IMG/VR virus record: IMGVR_UViG_3300036851_000752
Span: 1-28,944 of that record
Origin: a virus
Length of the DNA stretch: 28,944 nt
Strand: one strand, 5' to 3'
Shown: positions 733 through 28,944 of the stretch, one piece after another
Position numbering within the stretch: the stretch's first letter is position 1
How the letters are laid out: every line of letters starts with the position of its first letter
Translations under genes and position numbers: made by a program
Notes under the pieces: model-generated
What the model was told of the DNA's origin: nothing
Database searches by the model: none
The model's input: only the letters and a program-made list of their open reading frames with translations

Positions 733-965
733 CGATGCGCCTGGCGCTGTCGCGGGCCACGGTCTCGGGCCCGGCGGGCACGTGGCAGAACGCCGTCGTG
801 CTGGCGCGCAACGGGCGCATGGTCGTGCGCTCCTCGGCCGGGGAGGTCCTGCTCGACGCCCAGGCCGACGCGGTGGTCGTGGTGCAGGGGGGCTCGTGGC
901 TGGTGCAGACCGACGGCGGGACGTACTCGGTGGTCAGGGAGCGAAAGGGGTGCGGCTGTGGGTGA
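729..965 (+). CDS. small hypothetical protein, beta-rich
   Basis: Seventy-eight residues. Possible starts are GTG 729 (GTGA overlap with a mini-ORF) and ATG 735 (with GAGG just upstream); both give nearly the same protein. The sequence alternates hydrophobic and polar residues with turns (RNGRMVVRSSAGEVLLDA) and ends CGCG, suggesting a small beta-sheet protein with a cysteine tail. It is the first of a tightly packed run of small genes whose starts and stops overlap. I do not recognise a family. Confidence 0.7.
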   Translation: MTMRLALSRATVSGPAGTWQNAVVLARNGRMVVRSSAGEVLLDAQADAVVVVQGGSWLVQTDGGTYSVVRERKGCGCG

Positions 966-1077
966 GGACGAGGAGGAGTCGTGGCACGACGACGTGGTGG
1001 CGTCGGTGATCGCGGTGGTCGCGGTGCTGCTCGCAACGGGGTTTGGCCTCGCACTGTTGTCGGGCGGGCACCCGTGA
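958..1077 (+). CDS. small single-span membrane protein
   Basis: GTG 958 to TGA 1075-1077 encodes only 39 residues. The N-terminus is acidic (MGEDEEESWHDD), followed by a continuous hydrophobic stretch of about 21 residues (VVASVIAVVAVLLATGFGLA) and a short tail LLSGGHP. This is the profile of a one-pass membrane protein. Both ends fit the local packing: the start overlaps the upstream gene by eight bases and the stop shares GTGA with the next start at 1074. Small membrane proteins of this kind occur in many phages, for example near lysis genes, but nothing here assigns a role. Composition and overlaps support reality. Confidence 0.65.
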   Translation: MGEDEEESWHDDVVASVIAVVAVLLATGFGLALLSGGHP

Positions 1078-1379
1078 CCGGCCAGGGGCCGACCGAGGCG
1101 GACCTCATCGCCGCGGCCAGGGCCATGCCCCCGCCGCCGCACAACCCGTTCGCCGCGGTCGGGCTGGGGCAGAACTGGCAGCCGGGCGCGTGCAACTGGC
1201 ACTGGCTCGGCGAGATCGAGACCGATAAGGGCGCCCGCCTGTTCCTCATCGGCTTCGACACGGTCGCCGGCCGCATCGGCATCGCCTTCGGCGACGAGGG
1301 CCTGCGCCGGTTCGTCGAGCAGGCCCAGGAGAAGCTCACGGGCATCGAGGTCGCGAGGCCGTCGCTGGTGACGCCTTGA
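1074..1379 (+). CDS. conserved hypothetical phage protein
   Basis: A GTG at 1074 overlaps the previous stop as GTGA, giving 101 residues. The frame is open further upstream, but that part is shadow sequence of the neighbouring genes. The product has a proline-rich early part (MPPPPHNPF), a tryptophan-containing core (NWQPGACNWHWLGEIE) and then an alternating strand/helix half (RLFLIGFDTVAGRIGIAFGDEGLRRF is the region around residues 50-75). It ends in a helix with VEQAQEKL. The character is that of a small soluble folded protein. No family is recognised; third-position GC is as high as in the structural genes. Confidence 0.7.
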   Translation: MTGQGPTEADLIAAARAMPPPPHNPFAAVGLGQNWQPGACNWHWLGEIETDKGARLFLIGFDTVAGRIGIAFGDEGLRRFVEQAQEKLTGIEVARPSLVTP

Positions 1380-6185: not shown

Positions 6186-6595
6186 TGGCGTCCGTGGCCT
6201 GGCCGGACTGCACGCTCGGAAATCGTCGCACGCGCGTCAACGCGGGATGGTTGCGACGTCGATGGTTAGAAGCCAAGGGGACCGTCGTGCCGAAGGGCAT
6301 GGTGCTCATGCATCGTTGCGACGAGCCGCGCTGCGACAACCTTGACCACCTGCTCATCGGGACACAGGGCGACAACCTGCGCGACGCGTCGATGAAGGGG
6401 CGGCTTCGGGGGTTCGCCCCATTGCGGGGCGAGGAGAACCCGACCGCCAAGCTGACGGAGCAAGAAGTGTTCGCCATCCGAGACCGACGGCGAAATGGCG
6501 AGGGCATCCGTGCCATAGCCCGAGACATGAGGATGGCGCATTCGTCGATCTCCAACATCGTGAGCGGGCGCCGATGGGCGCACGCAGGAGGCTGA
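6182..6595 (+). CDS. HNH endonuclease with C-terminal helix-turn-helix
   Basis: ATG 6182 overlaps the portal stop (ATGA) and has GGAAGGGG just upstream, giving 137 residues. The N-terminal region contains the HNH fold: WLRRRWLEAKGTVVPKGMVLMHRCDEPRCDNLDHLLIG, in which MH is the first catalytic histidine, the cysteines bind zinc and NLDHL supplies the Asn/His. A GTQGDNLRDASMKGR segment follows, typical of this HNH_3-like type. The C-terminal EENPTAKLTEQEVFAIRDR...IARDMRMAHSSISNIVSGRRW is a helix-turn-helix that would set target specificity. The codon bias is weaker than in portal or protease, as expected of an acquired gene. Its last codons hold the AGGAGG that serves the protease gene. Confidence 0.85.
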   Translation: MMASVAWPDCTLGNRRTRVNAGWLRRRWLEAKGTVVPKGMVLMHRCDEPRCDNLDHLLIGTQGDNLRDASMKGRLRGFAPLRGEENPTAKLTEQEVFAIRDRRRNGEGIRAIARDMRMAHSSISNIVSGRRWAHAGG

Positions 6596-6600
6596 TCTTG

Positions 6601-8142
6601 ATGTGGTCGATCAGACAGACCGACAACGGGTGGGAGGTCATCGCCGCCGACGGCAGCGTCTTCGCCACCCAGGCCAGCTACCACGAGGCGCTGGCCGTCA
6701 TCGCCACGCAGTTGCAGATCGTGCCGGCGGAGGGGACCGACGACAACCCCGAGGACGGGCTGCTCCCCGAGGTGTGGGAGGACGCGGGCGGCATCGCGTT
6801 CAGCCAGGAGACGGGCGACGGGCGCGACTTCTCGCAGTGCCTGTGGTCGGCGCGCGACCCCGCCACGATGTTCGTGCCGCTCATGCTCCAGACGGAGACG
6901 GAGTACGGGCACTTCGGCGCCCAGCTCGCCGGCTTCGCCGAGGCCGTGGAGGACCTCGGCCAGTCGACCACCCCGCGGGCCAGCGGCCGGTTCTACGACA
7001 GCGCCGTCGGGCGGCAGTTCCGGGACATGCTGCTCGGCGGCCGCTCGTTCACGGTGTCGGTCGACCCCGGCCACATCTCGGCCGTGTGGGAGTGCCTGCT
7101 CGAGGACGAGAACGGCTGGTGCATCGAGGACCGCATCACCTTCCTGGAGTACGAGATCATCGGCATCACCGGCACCCCGTTCGCCGGCTTCGCCGAGGCC
7201 GCCATCCGGCTCCGGGACGGGTCCGAGGGCTCGGACGAGGGCGCCGGCGAGGAGGAGGTGGCCGCCGCGGCCACCGCGACCGCGCTGTCGATCCCCCTGC
7301 GGCCGCCGGCCACGTGGTTCCACGAGCCCGAGCCCGACCTCGGCGACGAGCGCCTGGTCGAGCAGCGCGACGGCTCCTTCGCCTGCCCGCTGACCATCCT
7401 CGACAGCGGCCAGTTCTTCGGGCACCTCGCCCGGTGGGGCCAGCAGCACTCGGGCGACACGCGCTACCGCCCGCCGCAGAGCGCCGCGGCCTACGCCCAC
7501 TGGCACACCGGCGAGGTGGTGTGCGAGGACGGCACGCGCGTGGCGACCGGCACCTTCACCGTCGGCTGCGACCACGCCCTGCGCGGCCTGCGGGCCCGCG
7601 ACGCCGTCGACCACTACGCCCACGCCGGCCTGGCCTGGGGCGACGGCCGCGCCGTCGACGGCGAGTTCGGCCCCTGGGTGTGCGGCGCGCTCCGCCCCGA
7701 CGTCACCGCCGAGCAGCTCCGGGTGCTGCGGGCCTCCACGATGTCGGGCGACTGGCGCCGCGTCGGCGGCCACCTGGAGCTCATCGGAATCCTGGCCGTG
7801 AACCAGGGCGCCTTCGCCATCGCCCGCGAGACGCTGGTGGCCTCGGGCCTGGAGCAGATGCCGGAGGTGCGCACGGGCGGCGCCACCGAGGACGGGGAGC
7901 TGGTCAGCCTCGTCGCGTCCGGCCTGGTGACGCGGTGCCCCGACTGCCAGCGCCGCGCCGTGGAGGACGCCACCCGCCTCAACGGCCACCGGCGCGGGCG
8001 GGCCGCGGCGGCCGGCGGCCTCACGCGGGAGGCCGAGACGATGCTCCGCCAGATCAACAGCACCCTGGGCGTGATCGAGCGCCGGACCCGGCCCCTGGTG
8101 AGCCAGGCCCGGGAGCAGCTCGCCGAGCGCATCCGCGCCTGA
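6601..8142 (+). CDS. capsid maturation protease
   Basis: ATG 6601 follows GCAGGAGGC at a good distance and starts MWSIRQTDNGWEVI; an in-frame ATG at 6574 lies inside the HNH gene and is unlikely. The product is 513 residues. The second half has the hallmarks of actinophage capsid maturation proteases: GHLARWGQQHSG, then DGRAVDGEFGPWVCGALRPDV, and the block LRASTMSGDWRRVGGHLEL with the presumed catalytic Ser, followed by LIGILAVN. Such serine proteases cleave the scaffold region of the capsid protein during prohead maturation. The C-terminal 70 residues form a basic helix probably used to bind the capsid scaffold. Neighbours (portal upstream, capsid downstream) agree. Confidence 0.85.
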   Translation: MWSIRQTDNGWEVIAADGSVFATQASYHEALAVIATQLQIVPAEGTDDNPEDGLLPEVWEDAGGIAFSQETGDGRDFSQCLWSARDPATMFVPLMLQTETEYGHFGAQLAGFAEAVEDLGQSTTPRASGRFYDSAVGRQFRDMLLGGRSFTVSVDPGHISAVWECLLEDENGWCIEDRITFLEYEIIGITGTPFAGFAEAAIRLRDGSEGSDEGAGEEEVAAAATATALSIPLRPPATWFHEPEPDLGDERLVEQRDGSFACPLTILDSGQFFGHLARWGQQHSGDTRYRPPQSAAAYAHWHTGEVVCEDGTRVATGTFTVGCDHALRGLRARDAVDHYAHAGLAWGDGRAVDGEFGPWVCGALRPDVTAEQLRVLRASTMSGDWRRVGGHLELIGILAVNQGAFAIARETLVASGLEQMPEVRTGGATEDGELVSLVASGLVTRCPDCQRRAVEDATRLNGHRRGRAAAAGGLTREAETMLRQINSTLGVIERRTRPLVSQAREQLAERIRA

Positions 8143-8570: not shown

Positions 8571-10292
8571 GTGGACGAGCTCCTGGAACTTCTGGCCCAA
8601 GCCGAGCACCTGGCCGACCTCGACGACGACGCCCTGGCCGAGCTGCTGGCGAACCTCCGCCAGCAGGCGGAGGCGGTGCTCGAAGTCGACCCGACCGACG
8701 AGCAGCTCGAGCAGCTCGAGCGGGTGGCGACCGTCGTCTCCGAGATCGAGACGGAGCAGACGTCGAGGGCGGAGGACGCCCAGGCCCGGGCCGAGCGCGC
8801 CCAGGGCCTGCGCGAACGCATCGTCGGCGAGACCGACGAGACCGACGAGGGCGACGGGGGCGACGGCGCAGGCGACGGCGGAGAGGGCGAGCCGGGCGAC
8901 GGCGGAGAGGGCACCGAGACCCAGGAGCCGGAGGGCATCGCCGCCGCCGCCGGCACCACGCCCCCGTCGCGCCCCCGCGTCACGCGTGCGTCCGCCCGCC
9001 GGCCGGCGTCCATGACGCCCCGGCCCCGGTCCACGCGCCACGAGCCCCTGTCGCTGGTGGCCGCGGCGAACCTCGGCAACGTGCAGGCCGGCTCGTCCCT
9101 GAGCGACCCGACCGACCTCGCCCGCGCCTTCATCAGCGCCTACGACCTGGCCCGCGGCTACCGCGGCCCGAGGGTCAAGGTCCCGATCGCCCGCATCGGG
9201 CGGGAGGACCCGGGCGAGCTGTTCGGCGAGGAGCGCACCCTGCGCATGGGCTCGCCCGAGGCCAACACGGCGAAGATCGCCCAGCTCCAGAGCGTCGAGT
9301 CGATCACGGCGTCGGGCGGCCGCTGCGCCCCCTCGGAGGTCCGCTACGACATGCCGACCATCGGCGTCGAGGACCGGCCGGTGCGGGACGACATGATGCT
9401 GCGCGTCGGGGCCGACCGGGGCGGCATCCGCACCTTCCCCGTGCCGATCCTCAGCGACGTCGAGGGCGCCATCGACGTGTGGACCAACGACAACGACATC
9501 GACCCCGGCAGCGACGGGCCGTCGACCAAGCCGTGCCTCGTGCTCACGTGCCCGGACACCGACGAGACCATCGTCGACGCCGTGACGAAGTGCCTGGAGT
9601 TCGGCAACTTCCGGGCCCGCTTCTTCCCGGAGCAGGTCCAGGCGTGGCTCGACCTGGCGGCCGTCTGGCACGCCCGGTTCGCCGAGACCCGCCTGCTGAC
9701 GGCGATCGGCTCGGGCTCCACGCAGGTCACCAGCGGCCAGGTGCTGGGCGCCACGCCCGACGTGCTGGCCACGCTCAACCGGGCAGTCGCCGCGATCAAC
9801 TCGCGCTGGCGGCTCGGCCGGACCGGCGTGCCCCTGCGCTTCGGCGCCCCGGCGTGGCTCCTGGAGCTCATGCGCACGGACATCGCCCGCCAGCTCCCCG
9901 CCGGCACGCCCGACGAGCGCTACGCGGTCGCCGACGCCTCCATCCAGCGGTGGATCGAGCTGACGGGCGTCAACGTCACGTGGTTCCTCGACGGGGAGAG
10001 CGGCCAGATCTTCGGGCCGCAGGGCGACGGGCCCCTCGTGGGCTGGCCGTCCACCGTGGTCACGTACCTCTACCCGGAGGGCTCGTGGCTGTTCCTGGAC
10101 GGCGGCACGCTCGACCTCGGCATCGTGCGGGACTCGACGCTGAACGCCACGAACGACTACCAGATCTTCTCGGAGACGTTCGAGGCGGCGCACTTCCACG
10201 GCATCGAGTCGTACCGGCTCGTTTTGGATCTCTGCCCCGACGGCACCGTCAGCGGAACAGTCGAGATCTCGCCTTGCGACACGGGTAGCTGA
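8571..10292 (+). CDS. major capsid protein with N-terminal scaffold-like domain
   Basis: GTG 8571 after GGAGGG (8561-8566) gives 573 residues. Residues 1-90 form an acidic coiled coil (MDELLELLAQAEHLADL...), residues 90-125 are a Gly/Asp/Glu-rich linker, and residues 130-155 a basic stretch. This resembles a delta-type scaffold domain that the protease at 6601 would remove. The remainder is an HK97-type capsid body of about 410 residues, with the characters expected of actinophage capsids: a long spine-like segment around EQVQAWLDLAAVWHARF, a LRFGAPAWLLELMRTDIA region and a C-terminal FSETFEAAHFHGIESYRL. The last 24 codons from 10221 become AT-richer (GTT, TTG, GAT, GGA, ACA, CCT, GGT) just before the next HNH gene. 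Confidence 0.9.
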   Translation: MDELLELLAQAEHLADLDDDALAELLANLRQQAEAVLEVDPTDEQLEQLERVATVVSEIETEQTSRAEDAQARAERAQGLRERIVGETDETDEGDGGDGAGDGGEGEPGDGGEGTETQEPEGIAAAAGTTPPSRPRVTRASARRPASMTPRPRSTRHEPLSLVAAANLGNVQAGSSLSDPTDLARAFISAYDLARGYRGPRVKVPIARIGREDPGELFGEERTLRMGSPEANTAKIAQLQSVESITASGGRCAPSEVRYDMPTIGVEDRPVRDDMMLRVGADRGGIRTFPVPILSDVEGAIDVWTNDNDIDPGSDGPSTKPCLVLTCPDTDETIVDAVTKCLEFGNFRARFFPEQVQAWLDLAAVWHARFAETRLLTAIGSGSTQVTSGQVLGATPDVLATLNRAVAAINSRWRLGRTGVPLRFGAPAWLLELMRTDIARQLPAGTPDERYAVADASIQRWIELTGVNVTWFLDGESGQIFGPQGDGPLVGWPSTVVTYLYPEGSWLFLDGGTLDLGIVRDSTLNATNDYQIFSETFEAAHFHGIESYRLVLDLCPDGTVSGTVEISPCDTGS

Positions 10293-10331
10293 CCGGTGGT
10301 GGCCCTTGCGGAGCAGGTGCACGATGCTGGG

Positions 10332-11003
10332 ATGGCCCAGCGCACCTGCTCCGCGTGTGGCGACCGCATGCCCTCGGAGTCGTTCTCGCCGGGAGCCACG
10401 CAGTGCCGCCCATGCAGGAACGAGCGCAACCGCCGCCGCTACCCGGCCGACCGTGAAGCACTGCGGCTGGTAGGGACCAGCACCTGCAACACCTGCGGTA
10501 AGACCAAGCCGGCTGATGACTTCGTCGCGAGCAAGCGGACGCGGTGCAAGACATGCCACAAGCTGGCGCAGAAGGGGCGCTACCACGCGGGGGACAAGGC
10601 TCTTGCCAACGCCAAAGCGAAGGCATGGGCCAACGCCAACCGAGAGAAGCGCCGGGAGAGTGCCGCGGCCTACAACAGACGAAGGCGAGTGCTCGATCCC
10701 ACATGGGCGCGTAGCCATGACCAGCGCAACAACACGGCCCGTCATGCCCGAATTAGCGGCGCAGAGCGGTGCCTCATCACTGACCGGGACTTGGCCCGCC
10801 TCCGTGACCGCCAGCGCGGCTGCTGCGCGTACTGCGACGCCCTCGCTCCGTTGACTGTCGAGCACGTCGTCCCTCTCGTCCGCGGGGGCCGGCACAGCAT
10901 CGGCAACATCGTGCTGGCGTGCGGCCGCTGCAATAGCAGCAAGGGTCGCCGGCTACTCGTCGAGTGGCGTGCCTGGCAGGCCCAATCCGTAGGAGGCCGG
11001 TGA
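10332..11003 (+). CDS. HNH endonuclease with two N-terminal zinc ribbons
   Basis: A 223-residue protein from ATG 10332; GTG 10296 or GTG 10317 are possible earlier starts, the latter with GGAG upstream. Two CxxC...CxxC modules follow each other: CSACGDRMPSESF...CRPC and CNTCGKTKPADDF...CKTC. A basic helical linker with KAKAWANANREKRRES precedes the C-terminal HNH domain CAYCDALAPLTVEHVVPL, RGGRHSIGNIVLACGRCN, SSKGRR. All HNH residues (EH, N of GNIV, and the second Cys pair) are present, so it should be an active nuclease. It sits between capsid and the next virion gene and belongs to a different HNH type from its neighbours. AGGAGG near its end serves the next gene. Confidence 0.85.
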   Translation: MAQRTCSACGDRMPSESFSPGATQCRPCRNERNRRRYPADREALRLVGTSTCNTCGKTKPADDFVASKRTRCKTCHKLAQKGRYHAGDKALANAKAKAWANANREKRRESAAAYNRRRRVLDPTWARSHDQRNNTARHARISGAERCLITDRDLARLRDRQRGCCAYCDALAPLTVEHVVPLVRGGRHSIGNIVLACGRCNSSKGRRLLVEWRAWQAQSVGGR

Positions 11004-11854
11004 TGGCAAGTAGGGAAGGCGTCAGGGCGCCCATCCCCCGCGAGGCCGCGCTCAGCCTCGTCAACGCGATGGCCCCGCTGGACCCGGCCGCGGCCGGCCG
11101 GTGGGAGCTCGGGTTCTCCTTCCAGCCCGAGGCCTGCGGCGACGCGGACGTCGCCGACCCGTGCAACACCACGGCGTTCCAGTTCTCCGACCGCCCGGCC
11201 ATCGTCGAGGGGGAGCCCTTCGCCGTGCGCGCCGGCGACCGGTGCTCCAGCCTCGGCTTCCCGGCCGAGGACTACCAGGGACGGGCCGAGCGCCTGCTGC
11301 TGCGGTGCCAGTCCAAGCAGATCAGCCGGGAGCTGTGGGAGGGGACGCTGGCGCAGGCGGCGGGCTGGCCCAACCTGTTCCTGGCCGACTCTGGCGCCGA
11401 CACGGTGACCACCGGGCCCTCGGGCCTCATCGACTCGCTGGCCTGCCTGGAGCAGGCCCTGGCCGACTGCGCGTGCGGCGAGCGCGGCGTGATCCATGCC
11501 ACGCGCCAGGTCGTGACGCACTGGGCCGCCCTGGGCAACAGCGTGCTCCGGCGCGAGGGCGGCCTGCTGCTGACGGCGCACGACACCATCGTCGTCAGCG
11601 ACGCCGGCTACACCGGCACCGGGCCCGAGGGCCAGGCCGCGGGCGACAGCGTGTGGGCCTACGCCACGGGCCCGATCCAGGTCCGGGTCTCGGCGATCGA
11701 GGTCATCCCCGAGTCCCTGTCCGACGCGATCGACCGGGAGACGAACACCGTCGAGTTCGTCGCCCAGCGCCTGGCGTCCGCGACCTGGGACGGCTGCTGT
11801 AGATTTGCAGCAGAAGTAGACCTAGCGGCGTGTGCTATCGGGGGGGCTTCCTGA
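11003..11854 (+). CDS. virion structural protein, capsid-associated
   Basis: ATG 11003 after AGGAGG (10991-10996) gives 283 residues. The central and C-terminal parts, including GVIHATRQVVTHWAALG, DTIVVSDAGYTGTGPEG and VWAYATGPIQVRVSAIEV, resemble a protein I recognise as regularly following the capsid gene in actinophages; the exact role (decoration, minor capsid or head completion) is uncertain. The last 19 codons from 11795 (TGT AGA TTT GCA GCA GAA GTA ...) are strongly AT-rich compared with the rest. They duplicate, at protein level, a GC-rich remnant at 12236-12283 downstream of the inserted HNH gene. The stop overlaps the HNH start in TGATG. Confidence 0.75.
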   Translation: MASREGVRAPIPREAALSLVNAMAPLDPAAAGRWELGFSFQPEACGDADVADPCNTTAFQFSDRPAIVEGEPFAVRAGDRCSSLGFPAEDYQGRAERLLLRCQSKQISRELWEGTLAQAAGWPNLFLADSGADTVTTGPSGLIDSLACLEQALADCACGERGVIHATRQVVTHWAALGNSVLRREGGLLLTAHDTIVVSDAGYTGTGPEGQAAGDSVWAYATGPIQVRVSAIEVIPESLSDAIDRETNTVEFVAQRLASATWDGCCRFAAEVDLAACAIGGAS

Positions 11855-12283
11855 TGCTTCATCGGTGGGAAGGAAAGTTCATTCGCCTTGCCGATGATGA
11901 ATGTTGGCTTTGGAAGGATGCGCCCAGCAGCGAGGGATACGGTCGGTTTCACGTCGATGGCCGACAGGTCTATGCCCATCGCCTCGCCTACGAGCTGCTC
12001 GTCGGCCCGATCCCGACAGCCCTTGAGCTCGACCACCTTTGCCGGGTGCCGGCTCTGCGTCAACCCGGCACATCTGGAACCTGTGACCCGTGCCGAGAAC
12101 ACTCGACGAGGGGCCGTGGCTCGGACGGCCTTCTGTCCCCGAGGTCATGAGTTCACGCCTGAGAACACGCGGCTCACGCCGATCGGGCATCGCCGTTGTC
12201 GAACCTGCCATCGAGAGGCCGAGAGGCGCAGGCAGTGCCACTTCGCCGCCGAGGTGGACCTGACCGCCTGCGGGGCGAGCTAG
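11854..12283 (+). pseudogene. HNH endonuclease gene broken by a one-base insertion
   Basis: ATG 11854 overlaps the previous stop and is preceded by GGGGGG. The first 66 or so codons encode the HNH N-terminus (DDECWLWKDA, YGRFHVDG, HRLAYELLVGPI, LELDHLCRVPA). The frame then runs into unrelated sequence, while CVNPAHLEPVTRAENTRRG, CPRGHEFTPENT and CRTCHREAERRR continue in the next frame. Alignment with the intact gene at 26672 (75 of 77 bases identical from 11977 to 12053) places one extra base at about 12054. The second half has no stop of its own and reads in frame into the host-gene remnant, ending at 12283. It may be a pseudogene, a sequencing error or, less likely, a programmed shift. Confidence 0.8.
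12236..12283 (+). pseudogene. remnant 3' end of the virion gene displaced by the HNH insertion
   Basis: Sixteen codons including the stop, reading CHFAAEVDLTACGAS, all G/C-ending in the style of the structural genes. The virion gene upstream now ends CRFAAEVDLAACAIGGAS in different, AT-rich codons. The remnant keeps the original spacing to the next gene at 12293. Confidence 0.8.
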
Positions 12284-12292
12284 AGGAGGATC

Positions 12293-12529
12293 ATGCCCGA
12301 CGAGACGACACAACGGCCCCTGCGGGGTTGCGACGTGTGCGGCCGGGTCGACGACCACCCCCGCCACGTCCAGGTCGGTGGCACCGCCGGGCCGGTCATC
12401 CGCCATCATGACTGCTGCGCCTCGCGCGGTTGTCCCACGTGCACCCAGACCGAGGCCGAGAACGCTGGCCGGCGGGGCCAGGACCTAATCGACCACCTGG
12501 CTGCGACCAGGGAGGCCTCCGATGGCTGA
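12293..12529 (+). CDS. small cysteine/histidine-rich protein
   Basis: ATG 12293 with GAGGAGG just upstream gives 78 residues. The sequence has CDVCGRVDDHPRHVQVGG near the start and then HHDCCASRGCPTCTQTEAEN, so up to seven cysteines and several histidines are arranged as in a small zinc-binding protein. The C-terminal helix is GRRGQDLIDHLAATRE. Similar CxxC...H...CC proteins sit among the structural genes of other actinophages, without known function. The end overlaps the next gene start by eight bases, which points to coupled translation. Before the HNH insertion it would have followed the virion gene directly. Confidence 0.75.
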   Translation: MPDETTQRPLRGCDVCGRVDDHPRHVQVGGTAGPVIRHHDCCASRGCPTCTQTEAENAGRRGQDLIDHLAATREASDG

Positions 12530-12890
12530 GGGATGGGGCCCCTCGGGGGCGGGGACCGCGCTCGACGCGCTCACTGCCGCCTACCAGTGGGTCAAGCTCC
12601 ACATCGGCGCGCCCGGCGCCTCGGGCACCGCGAACCCGGCGACGGAGACCACCCGCAAGCAGGCGGCCTTCAACGCCACCGGCACCGACGGGATCGTCGA
12701 GACCTCGGGCGCGCTCACCTGGACGAACATCGCCGGCTCTGAGGACGCCACACACTTCACTGTGTGGACAGCAGCAGCGGCCGGTAACTTCGGCTTCTCC
12801 GGGACGATCACGGCCAACGCCTACACGGCGGGGGACACCTTGACAATCTCGGCTGGTGCACTTTCAGCCAGCGTGACATTAGCCTCGTGA
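12522..12890 (+). CDS. tail-fibre-like virion protein
   Basis: ATG 12522 gives 122 residues. The pattern YQWVKLHIGAPGASGTANPA, TTRKQAAFNA, ALTWTNIAGSEDATHFTVW and NFGFSGTITANAYTAGDTL is one I recognise as a widespread small actinophage protein, usually annotated as tail fibre or minor tail protein and probably beta-rich. The last 18 codons (12837-12890) are recoded: ACC TTG ACA ATC ... GGT GCA CTT TCA ... ACA TTA, in contrast to the rest. A GC-rich copy encoding nearly the same residues lies at 13632-13685, beyond the HNH gene. So the present 3' end appears to have been supplied by the inserted element. Confidence 0.75.
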   Translation: MAEGWGPSGAGTALDALTAAYQWVKLHIGAPGASGTANPATETTRKQAAFNATGTDGIVETSGALTWTNIAGSEDATHFTVWTAAAAGNFGFSGTITANAYTAGDTLTISAGALSASVTLAS

Positions 12891-12901
12891 TGCCTGCATT
12901 T

Positions 12902-12920
12902 GCCGTGATAGTCTCACGGC
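12902..12920 (+). promoter_or_regulatory. inverted repeat enclosing a -10-like box before an HNH gene
   Basis: GCCGTGA (12902-12908) and TCACGGC (12914-12920) are perfect seven-base complements around TAGTC. TAGTCT (12909-12914) fits TANNNT and lies six bases before the ATG at 12921, so the HNH gene may have its own leaderless promoter. The palindrome could be an operator for the HNH protein's own helix-turn-helix domains; this is inference. Confidence 0.5.
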
Positions 12921-13622
12921 ATGAGCGAGATCGTTGACCTCTACATGCAGGGCGTGACTGTCACCGACATCTGCGAGCATGTTGGCCGGTCGAAGACACA
13001 GGTCCATCGCGTACTTCGAGCCGCAGGGGTTCCTCGTCGGCGCCAACCGCACCCACGCCCTTCGGGGGCGACCGCTGCGGAAATCGTCGCGATGTACCTG
13101 GATGGTCACTCCCTGGACGCGATAGGTAGGAGATTCGACGTCAGCGGCGGCACCATCCGCAATGTCCTCATCGAGCAAGGCATCGACCGTCGCGACCCCT
13201 GGGCTGAGATGGTTGTGCCCACCGAATTGCGTTCCCAGATCATCGAACTGCGGGCCGGTGGAGCGAAGATCGCTGACATCGCTCGGGATGTCCACCTCAA
13301 CTACCGGACGGTGTCAAGAGTCCTGAGCAACGCAGGCGGAATGAACAAGAAGCATCGAAAGCCGCGCCTGTTCGAGCGCAAGAGCGGCTATTGGCGGGCT
13401 CTGGCTGATGATGGACGGTACGTTCTTGAGCACCGCCTCGTCATGGAGCGTCACCTCGGCCGGCCACTGCGCTCCGATGAGACGGTGCACCACATCAACG
13501 GCGACAAGGCCGACAATCGTCTGGAGAACTTGCAGCTGCGCCACGGCAAGCACGGCAAGGGCACAGTGCTGCAATGTGTCGCCTGCGGGTCCCACAACAT
13601 CAAGGCGGTGTCTTTGTCATGA
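12921..13622 (+). CDS. HNH endonuclease with N-terminal helix-turn-helix repeats
   Basis: ATG 12921 gives 233 residues. Three similar helix-turn-helix segments occur in the first 140 residues: [40 protein letters not shown] and [20 protein letters not shown]. An HNH_3-type nuclease domain follows: [36 protein letters not shown], with the HH and N...N catalytic pattern intact, and a closing CVACGSHNI zinc-like end. This modular build differs from the short HNH genes elsewhere in the window. It lies 30 bases after the tail-fibre-like gene and is followed six bases later by that gene's original 3' end. A hairpin overlaps its presumed promoter. Confidence 0.88.
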
Positions 13623-13628
13623 GTCCCT

Positions 13629-13685
13629 TACACCCTGACCATCGCGGCGGGGGCGCTGACAGCGTCGGTGACGCTGGCTTCGTGA
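13629..13685 (+). pseudogene. remnant 3' end of the tail-fibre-like gene
   Basis: Nineteen codons including the stop, YTLTIAAGALTASVTLAS, with G/C-ending codons. The intact gene upstream ends TLTI-S-AGAL-S-ASVTLAS. Fifteen of 17 aligned residues agree although 15 of 54 bases differ. The stop overlaps the next gene in GTGA, the original gene junction. Confidence 0.85.
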
Positions 13686-14038
13686 AGCCCGTCGTCCGCG
13701 TCGTCGTCGTCGAGAACACCGACGGAGCCGTTCTCCAGCGTCGCCGCCAGTACGAGTACCCGGAGGACGTCGAGCGGGGCCTGGGGGCCTACGTCGATTC
13801 CCTGGACCTGCTGGGGGAGTGGAAGGACGCCTCGGCCGAGGCGATGGATGCCGAGATGCGTGGCCGCTACGAGCGGTGGGCCCAGGGCCTGCTGGAGGTC
13901 ACCGAGGCCGAGCCGGAGCCCGTCGACCCCCAGGCCATGGGCGACGTCCTCGACGCCACTGCTGCGACCCTCCAGCAGGCCCTGGATGCCATCGCCGCCA
14001 TCCGGCCTCCCGGGGAGCCGCAGCCTCAGGAGGAGTAA
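13682..14038 (+). CDS. small acidic helical protein
   Basis: GTG 13682, overlapping the remnant stop (GTGA), gives 118 residues; the frame is open further upstream only through HNH and remnant sequence. The N-terminus is a short strand (VRVVVVENTDGAVLQ), followed by an acidic helical body (QYEYPEDVERGLGAYVDSLDLLGEW) and a helix-rich end with a proline tail (RPPGEPQPQEE). No family is recognised. Originally it must have been translationally coupled to the tail-fibre-like gene; the remnant preserves the overlap, so its translation may now depend on ribosomes from the HNH gene or on direct initiation. Location between fibre-like genes suggests a virion or assembly role. Confidence 0.7.
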   Translation: MKPVVRVVVVENTDGAVLQRRRQYEYPEDVERGLGAYVDSLDLLGEWKDASAEAMDAEMRGRYERWAQGLLEVTEAEPEPVDPQAMGDVLDATAATLQQALDAIAAIRPPGEPQPQEE

Positions 14039-17000
14039 ATGGGGCGAGCGACCCCGAAGGGCACACGGCCGCCAGCCCGGGCAGCACGCCGCCCGACCTG
14101 GCACTACCCTCGGCCCGCCAAGCGGTGCCCCATCTCGATCCCCGAGGGCCAGTCGTTCCGCCACTGCACCTGCGGCCAGCTCAAGATCGGCACCCAGGCC
14201 GAGGTCGACCGCTGGTGGGGGTACCACCGCCGCGGCGAGGAGGCCCCGGCCCCGACCCGGGCCGACCGCTGGCGCGATGCCGTCGAGGCCGCGCCCGCCA
14301 AGGTCTCCTCGGCGCTGGGTGCCGTCCGCCGCCGGGCCCGGGGGGCAGCTCGCCGCGTCGCCGTGGCGCCGTCGTCGGTCCGGGCGGCGGTCGGCGAGGC
14401 GAGGGCCGTCGTGCGGCTCACGGCAGCCGTCACTCTGCTCGCCGTCGACGCGGCCCGCACCTCTTGGGGCACCGAAGACGAAGCTGAGGTCACCTGGCAC
14501 CAGGAGCTGCTGATCGCCCACCGACGGGGGCGGTGGTGGGTCTACACGGACCGGTGGGGACGCGAGGTCCGCCGGCTGCCGATCCTGACCGGCGCGGCGG
14601 CCATCGCCGCGGCCGGGTCGAACAACTGGAACACCAACGGCGCGTGGGTGGGAGGGGTGCAGCCCACGGCGGCCGACGACGTGACCATCCCGGCCGGCGC
14701 GGTGGTGACGATCCCCTCGGGCGTCACCGCCCTGTGCCGGTCGATCATCGTGGCCGCGGCGGGCACGATCGCGTTCGCGGCCACCTCGTCGAACCTCAAC
14801 GTGGGGGACGCCGGGGGTGGAGCGGCGACATTCTCCTCGGCCTCGACCGTCACCCTGACCGCCATCGGCACCATCAACTTCCTGGCCTCGACCGCGAGCA
14901 CGACCTACCAGCTCAGCACGGGCGGCAAGGTCATGCCCAACCTCACGGTCAACACGGCCAGCACGACCACCATCCAGTTCGCCGACGCGGTCACCGCCAC
15001 GGGGGCCACGGTCACGCTGACGGCGGGCAAGCTCGACACCAACGGGCAGTCGGTGTCGGCGTCGGTGTTCTCATCGACGAACTCGAACACCAGGACGCTG
15101 ACGCTTGGGGCCTCGTCGATGACGTTGAGCGGAACCGGCACTGTTTGGAATACCGGCACGATAACGAATCTGACGATGACATCGAACACGGCGACGATAA
15201 CATTCAGTGGTGCAGGTGTGGTGATAAGCGCCAGTTCCTTGAATTTCAACGGCGCTAGCATCGTGTTGTCGGGCTCAGGCTCTGCGTCCATCGGGGGTCA
15301 AACGATGGCGGCCTTGACCCGAACGGGGACGCCGGCCAAGACCGATTCTCTAATAACCACTGGAACTCCCACGGTCACCGGGACTCTAACCCTCAACAGC
15401 AACAGCGACGTGAACCGGCTACTCGTCCAGTCGAACGTGGTCGGCACCGTCCGCACCATCACCGCTGCTGCGCTGGTGGCCACGAATACCGTCGACTTCA
15501 TGGACATCACCGGGGCCGGGGCCGCGACGTGGACGACCGCCGCGTCCGGGGCCACCGCTTTTGGCGATGCCGGGGGCAACAGCGGGATCACGTTCACGGC
15601 CGCGGTCACCCGCTACGCCGTGGTGGCCGGGAACTGGTCGAGCACCGCTACGTGGGCCACGACCTCGGGCGGCGCGGGCGGGGCCTCGGTGCCGTTGCCT
15701 CAGGACAACGTGTTCCTCGACGCCAACAGCGCGGCGGGGACCTACACGGCCGACATGCCCCGCATCGGCAAGAACGTCGACTGCACGGCGTTCACGCGAA
15801 CTCTGGCCTTCTCGTCACTTGCTACGACCGTGTTCGGGTCGCTAACCCTCTCGTCGGGCATGACTGTCACCGGCACCCAAGGGACGACCTTCGCCGGACG
15901 CGGGTCCCACACCATGACCTTCGCAGGCAAGACGCTGGGCCAGTCCTGCACGCTCAACGGGCCGGGCGGTACCTACACCCTCCAGGACGCCGCCGCCACC
16001 ACGGGGGCGAGCGGGTTCATCCTCGTCAACGGAACCTTCAACACGAACGGCCAGAGCGTCACCTCTCCGGTGATGTCGATGTCTGCGGGGACAAAGACGC
16101 TCACCACCGGCAGCACCACATGGTCCCTCACCTCCACGTCCACAGTGAACATCTGGACGGCGACCACGGCCACCACGACGATCAACGCCAGCTCCGCCAC
16201 GCTGGTCATCGCCAACGCGAGCGCGAACACCCGCACGTTCATCGGCGCCGGCCACACCTACGGCACCTTGACCTACACCGTGGCCGGCTCGACGGGGGCG
16301 CTCGTCCTCACCGGGGCCAACACGTTCAGCACGATCAATGTCGGGTCGGGCCGCACCCTGACGCTCCCGTCGAGCACCACGACCACGGTGACAAACTGGA
16401 ACGTCAACGGTGTGGCAGGCAGTCTCACCACGCTCAACTCCTCCACGCCTGGCACGGCGGCCACGCTTTCGTCCCCGAGCGGGATCATCCGCAGCGACTA
16501 CCTGTCGATCAGGGACTCGAACGCGACGGGCGGGGCGGCTTGGCACGCGGGCAACAACTCCACCGACGTGAGCGGGAACACCGGGTGGATTTTCGCCGCG
16601 CCGACGATCACGGGCACCGCGTCTGCGGCGCTCGGTGGACTTGGCGCCACCGCCGCGGCCACGCCGACGATCGCCGCCCTGGGGGCCGCCACGCTCGGGG
16701 CGCTCAGCAGCACAGCGTCGGCGACGCCCGAGGTCGCCGCCACTGCCACCTCGCCCCTGGGTGGCCTGACAGCGACGGCGGCGGGCACCCTCATGGTTAT
16801 AGGGTCGGCCACGGCGAACCTCGGCAGCCTGACGGGGACAGCTGCCGGCACCCCGACTGTCTACGCCACGCTCACGGCGCCGCTTGGTCCTCTCATGGCC
16901 GCGGCGGCCGGAACGGTCGGCATCCCAGCCACCGCGTCTGCGGCGCTCGGTGGACTTGGCGCCACCGCCGCCGGTTCGGTGTCGGTCACCGGCACCGCGA

Positions 17001-23100: not shown

Positions 23101-23876
23101 GCACCGTCGTGGTGGTGCCGGTGCTGCACCCCGCCGCGCTGCGGCCGTGCGTCGAGACGATGCACCCCGAGCTGCTCGAGCGGCTGCTCATCATCGACAA
23201 CAGCCAGCGCGGCGTGGGGCACCGGGCACCAGGGCGGGTGTACCGGCCCGAGCACCACGGTCACCCGGGCGGCTACCGGCCGGCCTACAACCTGGGGGTG
23301 GCGCGGTCGATGAACGTCGCCGCTGACACCGGTGCCGACGTGGTGGTGTGGGTGTCGACATCGGTTCGGTTCGGGCCCGCAGGCGGAAGGGACCTGATCG
23401 CCGCGGCCGAAGCGTCCGACCTGGGGATGATGGCGGCCACCTGCAAGCTGCACGCCTTCGCCATCACCCGCCGGGGGTTCGACCTGGCCGGCCGGTGGGA
23501 CGCGAACCTGTTCCCGGCCTACTACGAGGACACCGATTGGCGCCGACGTCTGCACCTGGCGTGGACGCAGCCCAGCCCGGGCGACCCCGTGCCCCAGCAT
23601 CCCGACGTCGAGCGGGGCATGGCGCTGCCCGAGGTGGACGTGGATGTGGTGCAAGTACGCGATGGCCACGGCTACGACGTGCTGCGCGAGGCCAACCCCG
23701 GCCGGGTGGCGATCAACTTCGAGGCGCTGCAGGCGTACTATGCGCGCAAGTGGCATGGCCTTCCGGGGGCCGAGACCACCATCTATCCATTCGGCGACCC
23801 CTCTTTGCCGTTGGACTACTGGCCTCCATGTACCCGCAAAGAGTTGATCGACCGGTACGGGCTGGGCTTGGCTTGA
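23097..23876 (+). CDS. GT2-like glycosyltransferase without a normal DxD motif
   Basis: ATG 23097 gives 259 residues. The N-terminal Rossmann strand is STVVVVPVLHPAAL, with LLIIDNSQRG and HPGGYRPAYNLGVARSM, which match the nucleotide-binding part of GT-A family 2 enzymes. At the position where a DxD metal motif is expected the sequence is VVVWVSTSVRFGPAGG, so the acidic residues are missing. The later FPAYYEDTDWRRRLHLAW supplies the usual ED motif. It could be an active enzyme with an altered donor site or a degenerate one. It is the last gene of the coupled run; a 52-base gap follows, with a short hairpin at 23903-23916. Confidence 0.78.
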   Translation: MSTVVVVPVLHPAALRPCVETMHPELLERLLIIDNSQRGVGHRAPGRVYRPEHHGHPGGYRPAYNLGVARSMNVAADTGADVVVWVSTSVRFGPAGGRDLIAAAEASDLGMMAATCKLHAFAITRRGFDLAGRWDANLFPAYYEDTDWRRRLHLAWTQPSPGDPVPQHPDVERGMALPEVDVDVVQVRDGHGYDVLREANPGRVAINFEALQAYYARKWHGLPGAETTIYPFGDPSLPLDYWPPCTRKELIDRYGLGLA

Positions 23877-26131: not shown

Positions 26132-26688
26132 GCGACCCGTTTCGCCCGACGAGAAGACGACAAGGCAGCGAGCGCAGGTCCGACGTCGACACCATCGCCG
26201 ACCGCCTCCGCGTCTTCGGTGCCTCGACCGAGGAGGTCATCGAGTTCCGCCAGGCATGGGCCACCGGCAACGGCGACCGCGAACGCCTGCACGAGCTGGT
26301 GACGATGGACGACACCACCCTGCGCCGGATGCTCTCGGCCGCCCGCGGCGACGACCCGGACAACGACCGGCCCGTGGCCATCGACCAGGCCCCGCAGGCG
26401 ACCGTCATGGGCGTCGTCGGCGGGGCCCCTCAGGGCCCTTCTGCGGCCCCGGAACCCCTCGGGGCGCCCCAGCCAGGGGAGGGGGCGGCCGAGGGCTCAG
26501 AAGGGCGTCCAGGGGCCGATGTCGCGCTCCCGCCGCTCGGGTGGAGCGTGCCCAACCTGCTCGGGTGGGTCAACGGCGACCCGGTGCGGGCCCGGGCGCT
26601 GCTGGACGCCGAGCTGGCCCGGGCCGGCGACGCCCGCAAGAGCCTGGTCGGACGGCTCGAGGCGCTGGTCGATGCCGCCGCCGGCTGA
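26128..26688 (+). CDS. conserved actinophage hypothetical protein, probable structural or assembly role
   Basis: GTG 26128 gives 186 residues. The N-terminal third has TIADRLRVFGASTEEVIEFRQAW and LVTMDDTTLRRMLSAARGD; a Pro/Gly/Ala-rich linker of about 60 residues follows; the C-terminus is VPNLLGWVNGDPVRARALLDAELA with KSLVGRLEALV. I recognise this two-part pattern, ending in a W-x-x-DP-x-RA motif and an R-LE-x-L end, from hypothetical proteins beside the connector genes of other actinophages. The linker DNA is full of GGGCCCC-type words. It returns the map from glycan genes to morphogenesis. Its last 17 bases overlap the next HNH gene. Confidence 0.7.
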   Translation: MSDPFRPTRRRQGSERRSDVDTIADRLRVFGASTEEVIEFRQAWATGNGDRERLHELVTMDDTTLRRMLSAARGDDPDNDRPVAIDQAPQATVMGVVGGAPQGPSAAPEPLGAPQPGEGAAEGSEGRPGADVALPPLGWSVPNLLGWVNGDPVRARALLDAELARAGDARKSLVGRLEALVDAAAG

Positions 26689-27118
26689 CCGCCTTCTCCG
26701 CCGCGTGCTCGTCGACGAGGCCACAGGCTGTTGGCTCTGGCAGGGGGCCAAGGTTGGTGCCGGTTACGGGACGATCAAAGTCGACGGTCGAACGATCTTG
26801 ACCCACCGCCTCGCCTACGAGCTGTTCGTCGGCCCGATCCCGACAGCCCTTGAGCTCGACCACCTTTGCCGGGTGCCGGCGTGCGTGAACCCGGCCCACT
26901 TGGAGGCAGTGACCCACGCCGAGAATATGCGTCGTGGTCTCGCTGGTTTCGAGGACCCTGGCAAGTTCCAACGAGCGAAGACCCACTGCTCCGCCGGCCA
27001 CCCCTACGACGAGGCGAACACGCGGTTCAGCCGCATGAGGAATGGCAATCGCCAACGCAGGTGTGGTGCTTGCGAACGCGAACGTGACCGAGAACGTCGC
27101 CATCGGAGCGTGGCCTGA
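26672..27118 (+). CDS. HNH homing endonuclease, intact copy
   Basis: ATG 26672 lies inside the end of the previous gene and gives 148 residues. All family elements are in frame: ATGCWLWQGAKVGAGYGTI, HRLAYELFVGPIPTALELDHLC, RVPACVNPAHLEAVTHAENMRRG, and CSAGHPYDEANTRF with CGACERERDRERR. The DH of LELDHLC and the N of VNPAH are the catalytic core; four cysteines bind zinc. DNA from 26804 to 26880 is 75/77 identical to the broken gene at 11977-12053. Its first residues MPPPADRLL resemble the start of the downstream gene, MPPPPDRLF, so the element may have entered at the 5' end of that gene. The stop overlaps the next start in TGATG. Confidence 0.88.
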   Translation: MPPPADRLLRRVLVDEATGCWLWQGAKVGAGYGTIKVDGRTILTHRLAYELFVGPIPTALELDHLCRVPACVNPAHLEAVTHAENMRRGLAGFEDPGKFQRAKTHCSAGHPYDEANTRFSRMRNGNRQRRCGACERERDRERRHRSVA

Positions 27119-27621
27119 TGCCCCCGCCTCCCGACCGCCTGTTCGACCTGGCCGCCGCCGTCTTCGACGCCGTCGTCGACCACTTCGCGGCGGCGGGCGA
27201 GCCCCTGCCCGACCGGCGCTACATCGCCGACGGCCCCCCCTCGTGGGACTGCCAGCAGCTCACGGTCCACGTCGAGCGCACCTACGGCACGGAGGGCAAC
27301 GTAGCCGCCGAGGTCCTGGCGCCGGTGGCGTGCCTCGTGCTCCGCGGGGCCGTCGTCGCCGTCGAGATCGTGCGGTGCTGCCCGGTGGTGGACAGCTCGG
27401 GGGACGAGGTCATCATCCCGCCCGCCGCGGAGATCGAGGAGACGGCGCACCAGAAGCTGCGCGACGCCGTGCTGATGACCAACGCCATCGTGGCCGCCTA
27501 CCGCGCCGAGGCGCTGCCCGGCTGCCACGGCATCGCCATCGAGAACTGGGTCAACAGCGGGCCCCAGGGGGGCCTGACGGGGGGCGTCCTGCGGGTCAGG
27601 ATCGACCTGGCCGGTGGCTAG
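27118..27621 (+). CDS. probable tail terminator or head-tail connector protein
   Basis: ATG 27118 gives 167 residues. RRYIADGPPSWDCQQLTVHVERTYG resembles the beginning of actinophage tail-terminator or connector proteins, which have a RRY-x-x-G-x-x-x-WDCxQL pattern. A long strand region (ACLVLRGAVVAVEIVRCCPVV) and a helix (QKLRDAVLMTNAIVAAYRAEAL) follow, and strands at the C-terminus (GGLTGGVLRVRIDLAGG). The terminator forms the hexameric ring that caps the tail tube at the neck. Codon bias is very strong. The stop overlaps the next start by eight bases. The exact neck component cannot be fixed by eye. Confidence 0.65.
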   Translation: MPPPPDRLFDLAAAVFDAVVDHFAAAGEPLPDRRYIADGPPSWDCQQLTVHVERTYGTEGNVAAEVLAPVACLVLRGAVVAVEIVRCCPVVDSSGDEVIIPPAAEIEETAHQKLRDAVLMTNAIVAAYRAEALPGCHGIAIENWVNSGPQGGLTGGVLRVRIDLAGG

Positions 27622-28708: not shown

Positions 28709-28944
28709 TCATGTGGGCGAGGTCCTCGCCGCGATGGCGCGTCGCCTTCGTTGCGCCCGCGCCCGATCGCGCTTGCAGGCTCGACATGTACGCTGCCCCC
28801 GGTACCGATAGGTGTTGACCTCGTCGTAGGGATGGCCGGCGGGGCAGTGGGTCTTGGCTGTGTTCGATGCCGCGAAGGTGTCGCCACGTACCAGATTCTC
28901 CCGCAACGTCACTGCCTCCAAGTGGGCCGGGTTCACACATCGCC
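28709..28944 (-). CDS. C-terminal part of an HNH endonuclease, cut by the window edge
   Basis: Reading leftward from the edge, the frame gives RCVNPAHLEAVTLRENLVRG, then THCPAGHPYDEVNTYRYRG and CRACKRDRARAQRR, ending at a stop at 28709-28711. This is the second half of the same HNH type as at 26672; 29 bases around VNPAHLEAV are identical between them, and the KTHC-x-AGHPYDE region is nearly so. It is antisense to the structural genes and converges with the chaperone, 32 bases away. The N-terminal half, with the first catalytic His, lies outside the window, so intactness cannot be judged. Confidence 0.85.
   Translation of the reverse strand, partial: RCVNPAHLEAVTLRENLVRGDTFAASNTAKTHCPAGHPYDEVNTYRYRGQRTCRACKRDRARAQRRRRAIAARTSPT

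What the first reader, a model, noticed from the sequence alone, without database searches (positions are those of the whole stretch)
11795..12283. Second independent HNH insertion with a recoded host-gene 3' end and GC-rich remnant
The virion gene ends C-R-FAAEVDL-A-AC-AIG-GAS in codons such as TGT AGA TTT GCA GCA GAA GTA. After the HNH gene, 12236-12283 encodes C-H-FAAEVDL-T-AC-GAS and a stop in G/C-ending codons. The HNH gene here is of a different type from that at 12921, so two unrelated endonucleases in one genome share the same insertion architecture. This argues for a general strategy, not for a single accident.
Basis: partly seen in the sequence, partly recalled or inferred. Interest (0 to 1): 0.88.

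Follow-up and report, generated by a model that had tools for sequence, protein, structure and literature searches.

The report
Homing endonuclease carries replacement gene end
A selfish DNA-cutting gene sits inside the last codons of a phage capsid gene and seems to have brought its own differently spelled copy of the lost gene end, so the capsid protein stays whole without splicing; the same arrangement recurs in about one in twenty phage HNH genes tested.

Summary
The capsid (pentamer-type, phrog_779) gene 11003-11854 ends in a tail of A/T-ending codons (11798-11854). An HNH_3 endonuclease gene follows, and 12236-12283 still encodes the same tail in G/C-ending codons. Corrections: the HNH gene is frameshifted relative to a sister copy at 26.7 kb; its C-terminal half runs in frame into the old tail; the two HNH genes share the HNH_3 domain, so they are not wholly unrelated.

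Duplicated, divergent gene ends flank 10 of 216 HNH genes but 2 of 608 other genes in the same loci (p=5e-5; the replicate set alone is not significant). A mirror 5' type exists, including HNH4 here. In an M. abscessus prophage the leftover tail is 30/30 nt identical to HNH-less relatives, the expressed tail 18/30. In GageAP and Smoothie the gene start beside the HNH gene is replaced.

Best reading: homing insertion inside a coding end with a carried replacement end, like fungal mitochondrial mORFs; a new phage/HNH variant with an N-terminal mirror form. Whether the end was recoded under selection or is merely foreign is open.

The parts
11003..11797 (+). Body of capsid pentamer-type gene (phrog_779)
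   Evidence: phrog_779 E=5.6e-30; tblastn to actinophage proteins, one annotated 'major capsid pentamer protein'; GC3 0.98
11798..11854 (+). Carried (divergent, A/T-ending) tail of the capsid gene, with stop
   Evidence: GC3 0.37 over 19 codons; aligns to the end of the uninterrupted ortholog L005 through IGGAS
11854..12235 (+). HNH2, HNH_3/phrog_826 endonuclease gene; start codon overlaps the capsid stop; one-base frameshift near 12060
   Evidence: Two frames each hit phrog_826; 86% nt match to HNH4 with one extra base
12236..12283 (+). Remnant of the native capsid gene end (G/C-ending), in frame with the C-terminal half of HNH2
   Evidence: GC3 1.00; in-frame reading
12522..12836 (+). Body of Gp80/phrog_240-like head gene
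   Evidence: Pfam Gp80 E=2e-13, phrog_240
12837..12890 (+). Carried tail of that head gene, with stop
   Evidence: aa identity 0.88, nt identity 0.69 to remnant; GC3 0.53 vs 0.88
12921..13622 (+). HNH3, helix-turn-helix repeats + HNH_3 endonuclease
   Evidence: Pfam HTH_23, HNH_3
13632..13685 (+). Remnant of the native head-gene end, in frame with HNH3 but behind its stop
   Evidence: Terminal-anchored score 67, p=0.0005; frame
10219..10292 (+). Capsid hexamer gene tail with lowered GC3 (0.54 vs 0.98); probably also carried, no remnant found
   Evidence: suggestive only
10296..11003 (+). HNH1 endonuclease gene
   Evidence: Pfam HNH E=4e-11
26672..27118 (+). HNH4, intact sister of HNH2; first codons (26672-26695) look like the native start of the downstream gene
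   Evidence: 5'-type score 40, p=0.0016
27118..27141 (+). Possible carried start of the downstream gene 27118-27621
   Evidence: MPPPPDRL vs MPPPADRL, nt identity 0.79; short, so weak alone

Best explanation
A free-standing HNH homing endonuclease gene inserted inside the last codons of a capsid gene. The incoming DNA was [replacement gene end + stop][HNH gene]; it joined the host gene body on the left and the host's own cut-off end on the right. The capsid protein is completed by the carried end, without RNA or protein splicing, and the original end survives downstream as a remnant read in frame with the endonuclease, which borrows its stop. Because the carried end is spelled differently, the occupied allele would no longer match the endonuclease target and would not easily recombine with the remnant. 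Shown: the anatomy, its recurrence, native origin of the remnant in an isolate with HNH-less relatives, strong divergence of the carried end. Inferred: cutting at the body/remnant junction, homing, protection by divergence. HNH2 itself now looks inactive (frameshift) while the carried end persists.
For: Anatomy and codon usage in the window. Upstream tail matches an uninterrupted ortholog to the last residues. Enrichment of duplicated divergent ends beside HNH genes, 10/216 vs 2/608, p=5e-5. M. abscessus prophage CCUG48898T-2: remnant 30/30 nt identical to HNH-less relatives, expressed tail 18/30. GageAP DNA polymerase I head and Smoothie endolysin head replaced relative to HNH-less relatives. 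50-92% of identical residues differ in codon in 16 pairs. Remnant in frame with HNH in 8/8 3'-type and 7/9 5'-type cases.
Against: No close HNH-less relative of this phage was found, so the direction in the window rests on codon usage and one 45% ortholog. Replicate survey alone not significant. No endonuclease activity tested. HNH2 is frameshifted. Donor of a carried end was not found. The in-frame and codon statistics include related pairs (L132/L145, L025/L030).
Confidence: 0.74

Rival explanations
1. Module-boundary mosaicism: HNH genes simply sit at recombination breakpoints. Crossing with a diverged phage left a foreign gene end on one side and the native end on the other, with no homing at that site and no benefit from the difference.
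For: HNH and other nuclease genes are reported at boundaries of genetic exchange (PMC10448857); Cluster J authors describe a new lysin A 3' end beside an HNH gene and suggest errors in repair (PMC3706429). Carried ends also contain amino-acid changes, as a foreign ortholog would.
Against: The expressed gene is complete and the native end is kept just beyond the HNH gene, in frame with it in 15 of 17 cases. Mere mosaicism does not predict a 4.6% vs 0.3% enrichment of duplicated ends.
Confidence: 0.17
2. Ordinary tandem duplication of the gene end followed by drift; the HNH gene came later between the copies.
For: Two copies flank the HNH gene.
Against: Synonymous differences are near saturation while amino acids are kept, and the remnant is unchanged from HNH-less relatives in the prophage case (30/30 nt), so the expressed copy alone is foreign. 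GageAP and Smoothie heads differ abruptly from relatives that are about 90-100% identical beyond.
Confidence: 0.03
3. A group I intron, intein or translational bypass removes the insert and joins the body to the native end.
For: HNH genes often live in introns and inteins; introns occur in capsid and tail genes of Cluster J mycobacteriophages (PMC3706429).
Against: No intron family in Rfam at E<=1 in 9800-14100; no splicing domain hit; the gene body is already completed by a stop-terminated tail matching the ortholog.
Confidence: 0.04
4. Chance similarity of short peptides in GC-rich DNA.
For: Short peptides; noise in GC-rich frames was high in loose tests.
Against: Two 3' pairs in one window at p=0.0005 each; pooled enrichment; exact native match in the prophage.
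Confidence: 0.02

Closest known systems
Fungal mitochondrial mobile endonuclease ORFs (mORFs) with carried C-termini: Allomyces atp6; Glomus atp6, atp9, cox2, nad3 (PMC3630166)
   Same: Endonuclease gene behind a foreign, mostly synonymous-divergent C-terminal end in phase with the host gene; native C-terminal end left downstream and closer to relatives without the element
   Different: LAGLIDADG or GIY-YIG rather than HNH; mitochondria rather than phages; the N-terminal mirror form was not among the cases read there
ShiLan insertion in phage methylases (PMC11855218)
   Same: HNH gene inserted in coding sequence without splicing signals; first 11 residues of the insert resemble the 11 residues after the insertion site at about 66% nt identity
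   Different: Mid-gene, reads through in the host frame with HNH in another frame; authors did not interpret the repeat as a carried end. I did not re-analyse those sequences
T4-type free-standing homing endonucleases, Seg and Mob (PMC2988022)
   Same: Splicing-free endonuclease genes spread by repair of cuts in phages lacking them; divergent flanks can be resistant
   Different: Insert between genes or split a gene in two (mobE in nrdA, mobA in gene 60); carried gene ends not described in the passages read
Omega gp51 HNH beside lysin A (PMC3706429)
   Same: HNH insertion in a phage gave a new 3' end to the neighbouring gene
   Different: Described as loss of 35 bp with a new end; no remnant or replacement model

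Membership tests
Free-standing HNH homing endonuclease | HNH nuclease domain in its own gene | tested here: met
   HNH2 phrog_826, HNH_3, though frameshifted; HNH1, HNH3 and HNH4 have intact frames
Free-standing HNH homing endonuclease | Presence/absence among close relatives at the same site | tested here: inconclusive
   Not for this window (only a 45-50% relative, L005, without the HNH genes); met for GageAP, Smoothie and the M. abscessus prophage
Free-standing HNH homing endonuclease | Site-specific cutting and transfer in crosses | not testable with these tools
   Needs bench work
mORF-type end replacement | Carried, divergent gene end in phase with the host gene | tested here: met
mORF-type end replacement | Native end left beyond the endonuclease, closest to element-free relatives | tested here: inconclusive
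   Remnant present in the window with native codon usage, no close element-free relative to compare; met in the M. abscessus prophage, 30/30 nt
mORF-type end replacement | LAGLIDADG or GIY-YIG endonuclease in fungal mitochondria | tested here: not met
   HNH genes in phages; so it works like an mORF but is not a member of that set
Group I intron or intein | Self-splicing RNA structure or protein-splicing domain | tested here: not met

The most novel reading that the evidence does not exclude
Phage HNH genes use a third, splicing-free way to live inside coding sequence besides introns and inteins: they carry a replacement for the gene end they cut off, C-terminal or N-terminal, recoded under selection so that the occupied gene resists the enzyme and does not recombine with the remnant. 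That would be a natural counterpart of synthetic gene drives with a recoded rescue.
Probability: 0.4. Interest if true: 0.8.

Novelty: new variant of a known kind. Interest (0 to 1): 0.64.

Why it matters
It explains how homing genes can invade conserved coding sequence (capsid, polymerase, exonuclease and lysin genes) without splicing, and extends an oddity of fungal mitochondria to phages. It offers a candidate explanation for the unexplained 11-residue repeat of the ShiLan element and for abrupt divergence at gene ends beside HNH genes. The junction between gene body and native end predicts where each enzyme should cut, which can be tested in laboratory phages such as GageAP.

Tried and rejected
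A loose flank-similarity survey and wide-window versions were noisy in GC-rich frames; the wide version gave only p of about 0.04-0.12. They were replaced by a terminal-anchored test, then applied with fixed thresholds to a replicate set. The anchored test was designed after seeing the first results, so the first set is partly exploratory. A tblastx self-comparison timed out. No relatives of the window by megablast; pentamer-protein scans gave nothing, then only L005 again. HNH1 gave one weak viral match. Low-GC3 stretches also occur elsewhere in the window, so GC3 alone is not diagnostic. Clean insertion without a replaced end: Mutaforma13. The donor of the GageAP polymerase head was not found in 50,697 phage records. 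The HNH2 frameshift could be an assembly error; not checkable here.

Full report
WHAT IS THERE. The window is a 28,944-base IMG/VR virus record with a virion gene block: portal (6574-8142), capsid hexamer (8571-10292, phrog_777), pentamer-type protein (11003-11854, phrog_779) and a Gp80/phrog_240-like head protein (12522-12890). Each of the last three is followed by an HNH gene. The pentamer gene is G/C-ending in 98% of codons up to 11797, then falls to 37% over its last 19 codons. After HNH2, 12236-12283 encodes the same peptide in G/C-ending codons. The head gene 12522-12890 shows the same with HNH3 and 13632-13685. Both pairs lie at p=0.0005 against shuffled flank pairings.

CORRECTIONS. 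HNH2 has a one-base insertion relative to its 86%-identical sister HNH4 at 26.7 kb, so it is probably dead unless the assembly is wrong. Its C-terminal half runs in frame into the remnant and uses the remnant's stop. The remnant has three residues fewer. HNH2 and HNH3 share the Pfam HNH_3 domain but differ in the rest. HNH4 shows the mirror image: its first codons (MPPPADRL) look like the native start of the downstream gene, which now begins MPPPPDRL. The hexamer tail before HNH1 also loses GC3 (0.98 to 0.54), but no remnant follows, so that case is only suggestive.

WHICH COPY IS NATIVE. L005, an uninterrupted relative (hexamer 50%, pentamer about 45% identical), aligns with the upstream copy through its last residues, IGGAS. 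So the upstream copy is a complete, ortholog-like end. The downstream copy has the phage's own codon usage. No close HNH-less relative of this phage was found, so direction in the window is inferred.

SURVEY. HNH loci were fetched with the HNH types of this window and types met on the way. With a test anchored on stop or start codons, 157 non-redundant HNH genes were compared with 451 other genes in the same loci. A 3' duplicated end scoring at least 60 occurs at 5 HNH genes and 0 controls: L019 (exonuclease), L132 and L145 (PurM-like, related to each other), L201, L031. The 5' mirror type at 50 or more occurs at L078, L198, L030 and L025 (the last two related) against 2 controls, one a tandem HNH gene. 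A replicate set with thresholds fixed beforehand gave 1/59 (L271, 22 residues) vs 0/157, not significant alone, and 3/59 vs 0/157 at the looser threshold of 40 (p=0.02). Pooled at 50: 10/216 vs 2/608, p=5e-5. The arrangement is enriched but is a minority of HNH insertions.

ISOLATES WITH HNH-LESS RELATIVES. M. abscessus prophage CCUG48898T-2: gp38 ends AKRVYPSSELGLT and HNH gp39 ends AKRVYPSEEL. Over these ten codons the gp39 end is 30/30 nt identical to the gp38-homolog end in HNH-less prophiGD02-2 and prophiT49-3; the gp38 end itself matches 18/30. GageAP: the first ~150 nt of DNA polymerase I are 60-80% identical to McGuire, KyMonks1A and Hermia, which lack the HNH gene there; beyond about 180 nt identity is 93-100%. 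Its HNH gene starts with the relatives' native GTGAAGCAAC. That head matches no other phage record. Smoothie: the head of endolysin gp52 is 60-70% identical to HNH-less Aphelion, then 90-100%. Counter-example: Mutaforma13 is a clean insertion.

PROPERTIES OF THE CARRIED END. In 16 pairs, 50-92% of identical residues use different codons. GC3 of the carried copy is below that of the native copy (Wilcoxon p=0.017; sign test p=0.12) and below that of the HNH gene it travels with (p=0.006). The latter hints at selection for divergence rather than plain donor codon usage, but pairs are few and not all independent. The native remnant is in the HNH reading frame in 8/8 3'-type and 7/9 5'-type cases.

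MECHANISM (mostly inferred). The endonuclease cuts near a conserved gene end. Repair copies from a donor in which the HNH gene abuts a divergent version of that end, and the right side joins the recipient's remaining end. Later transfers can use homology on both sides. The host gene works at once because the carried end completes it, and the occupied allele lacks the target because the site is split and the expressed end is spelled differently. Cutting, transfer and protection were not tested.

COMPARISON. The organisation equals that of fungal mitochondrial mORFs, where a foreign C-terminus travels with a LAGLIDADG or GIY-YIG gene and the native C*-terminus lies downstream (PMC3630166). The ShiLan insertion in phage methylases has an unexplained 11-residue repeat of its flank at about 66% nt identity (PMC11855218). 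Omega gp51 gave a new lysin A 3' end (PMC3706429). The passages read of phage homing papers describe intergenic or gene-splitting insertions and boundary positions, not carried ends (PMC2988022, PMC10448857, PMC12724721). Intron and intein readings were tested and not met. The library is open-access only, so an earlier phage report may exist elsewhere.

Noticed in passing
window 26780-26925 and 11953-12099: HNH4 and HNH2 share a block of 86% nt identity, including about 60 nearly identical bases, while their ends differ: spread or gene conversion of one HNH type between two sites in one phage genome.
   Followed up: partly
window 28709-28936 (- strand): Another HNH_3-like reading frame, cut off by the contig end, on the opposite strand.
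   Followed up: no
window 23291-23384: Predicted tRNA-Val (gac).
   Followed up: no
window 931-1081 (- strand frame 476-1345): Stretch of very low GC3 (minimum 0.26 in 19 codons) in an otherwise G/C-ending frame; may be a wrong gene call or foreign DNA.
   Followed up: no
L144 339-908: In a relative of L132 the HNH gene lacks the remnant (ends HGRVTTA) while the upstream carried tail is kept, as expected if only the carried end is needed.
   Followed up: partly
L230 (Gordonia phage Smoothie) 833-1474: The last windows of endolysin gp50 are also less like Aphelion (0.67-0.90) than the rest, so both gene ends beside the HNH gene may have been replaced.
   Followed up: partly
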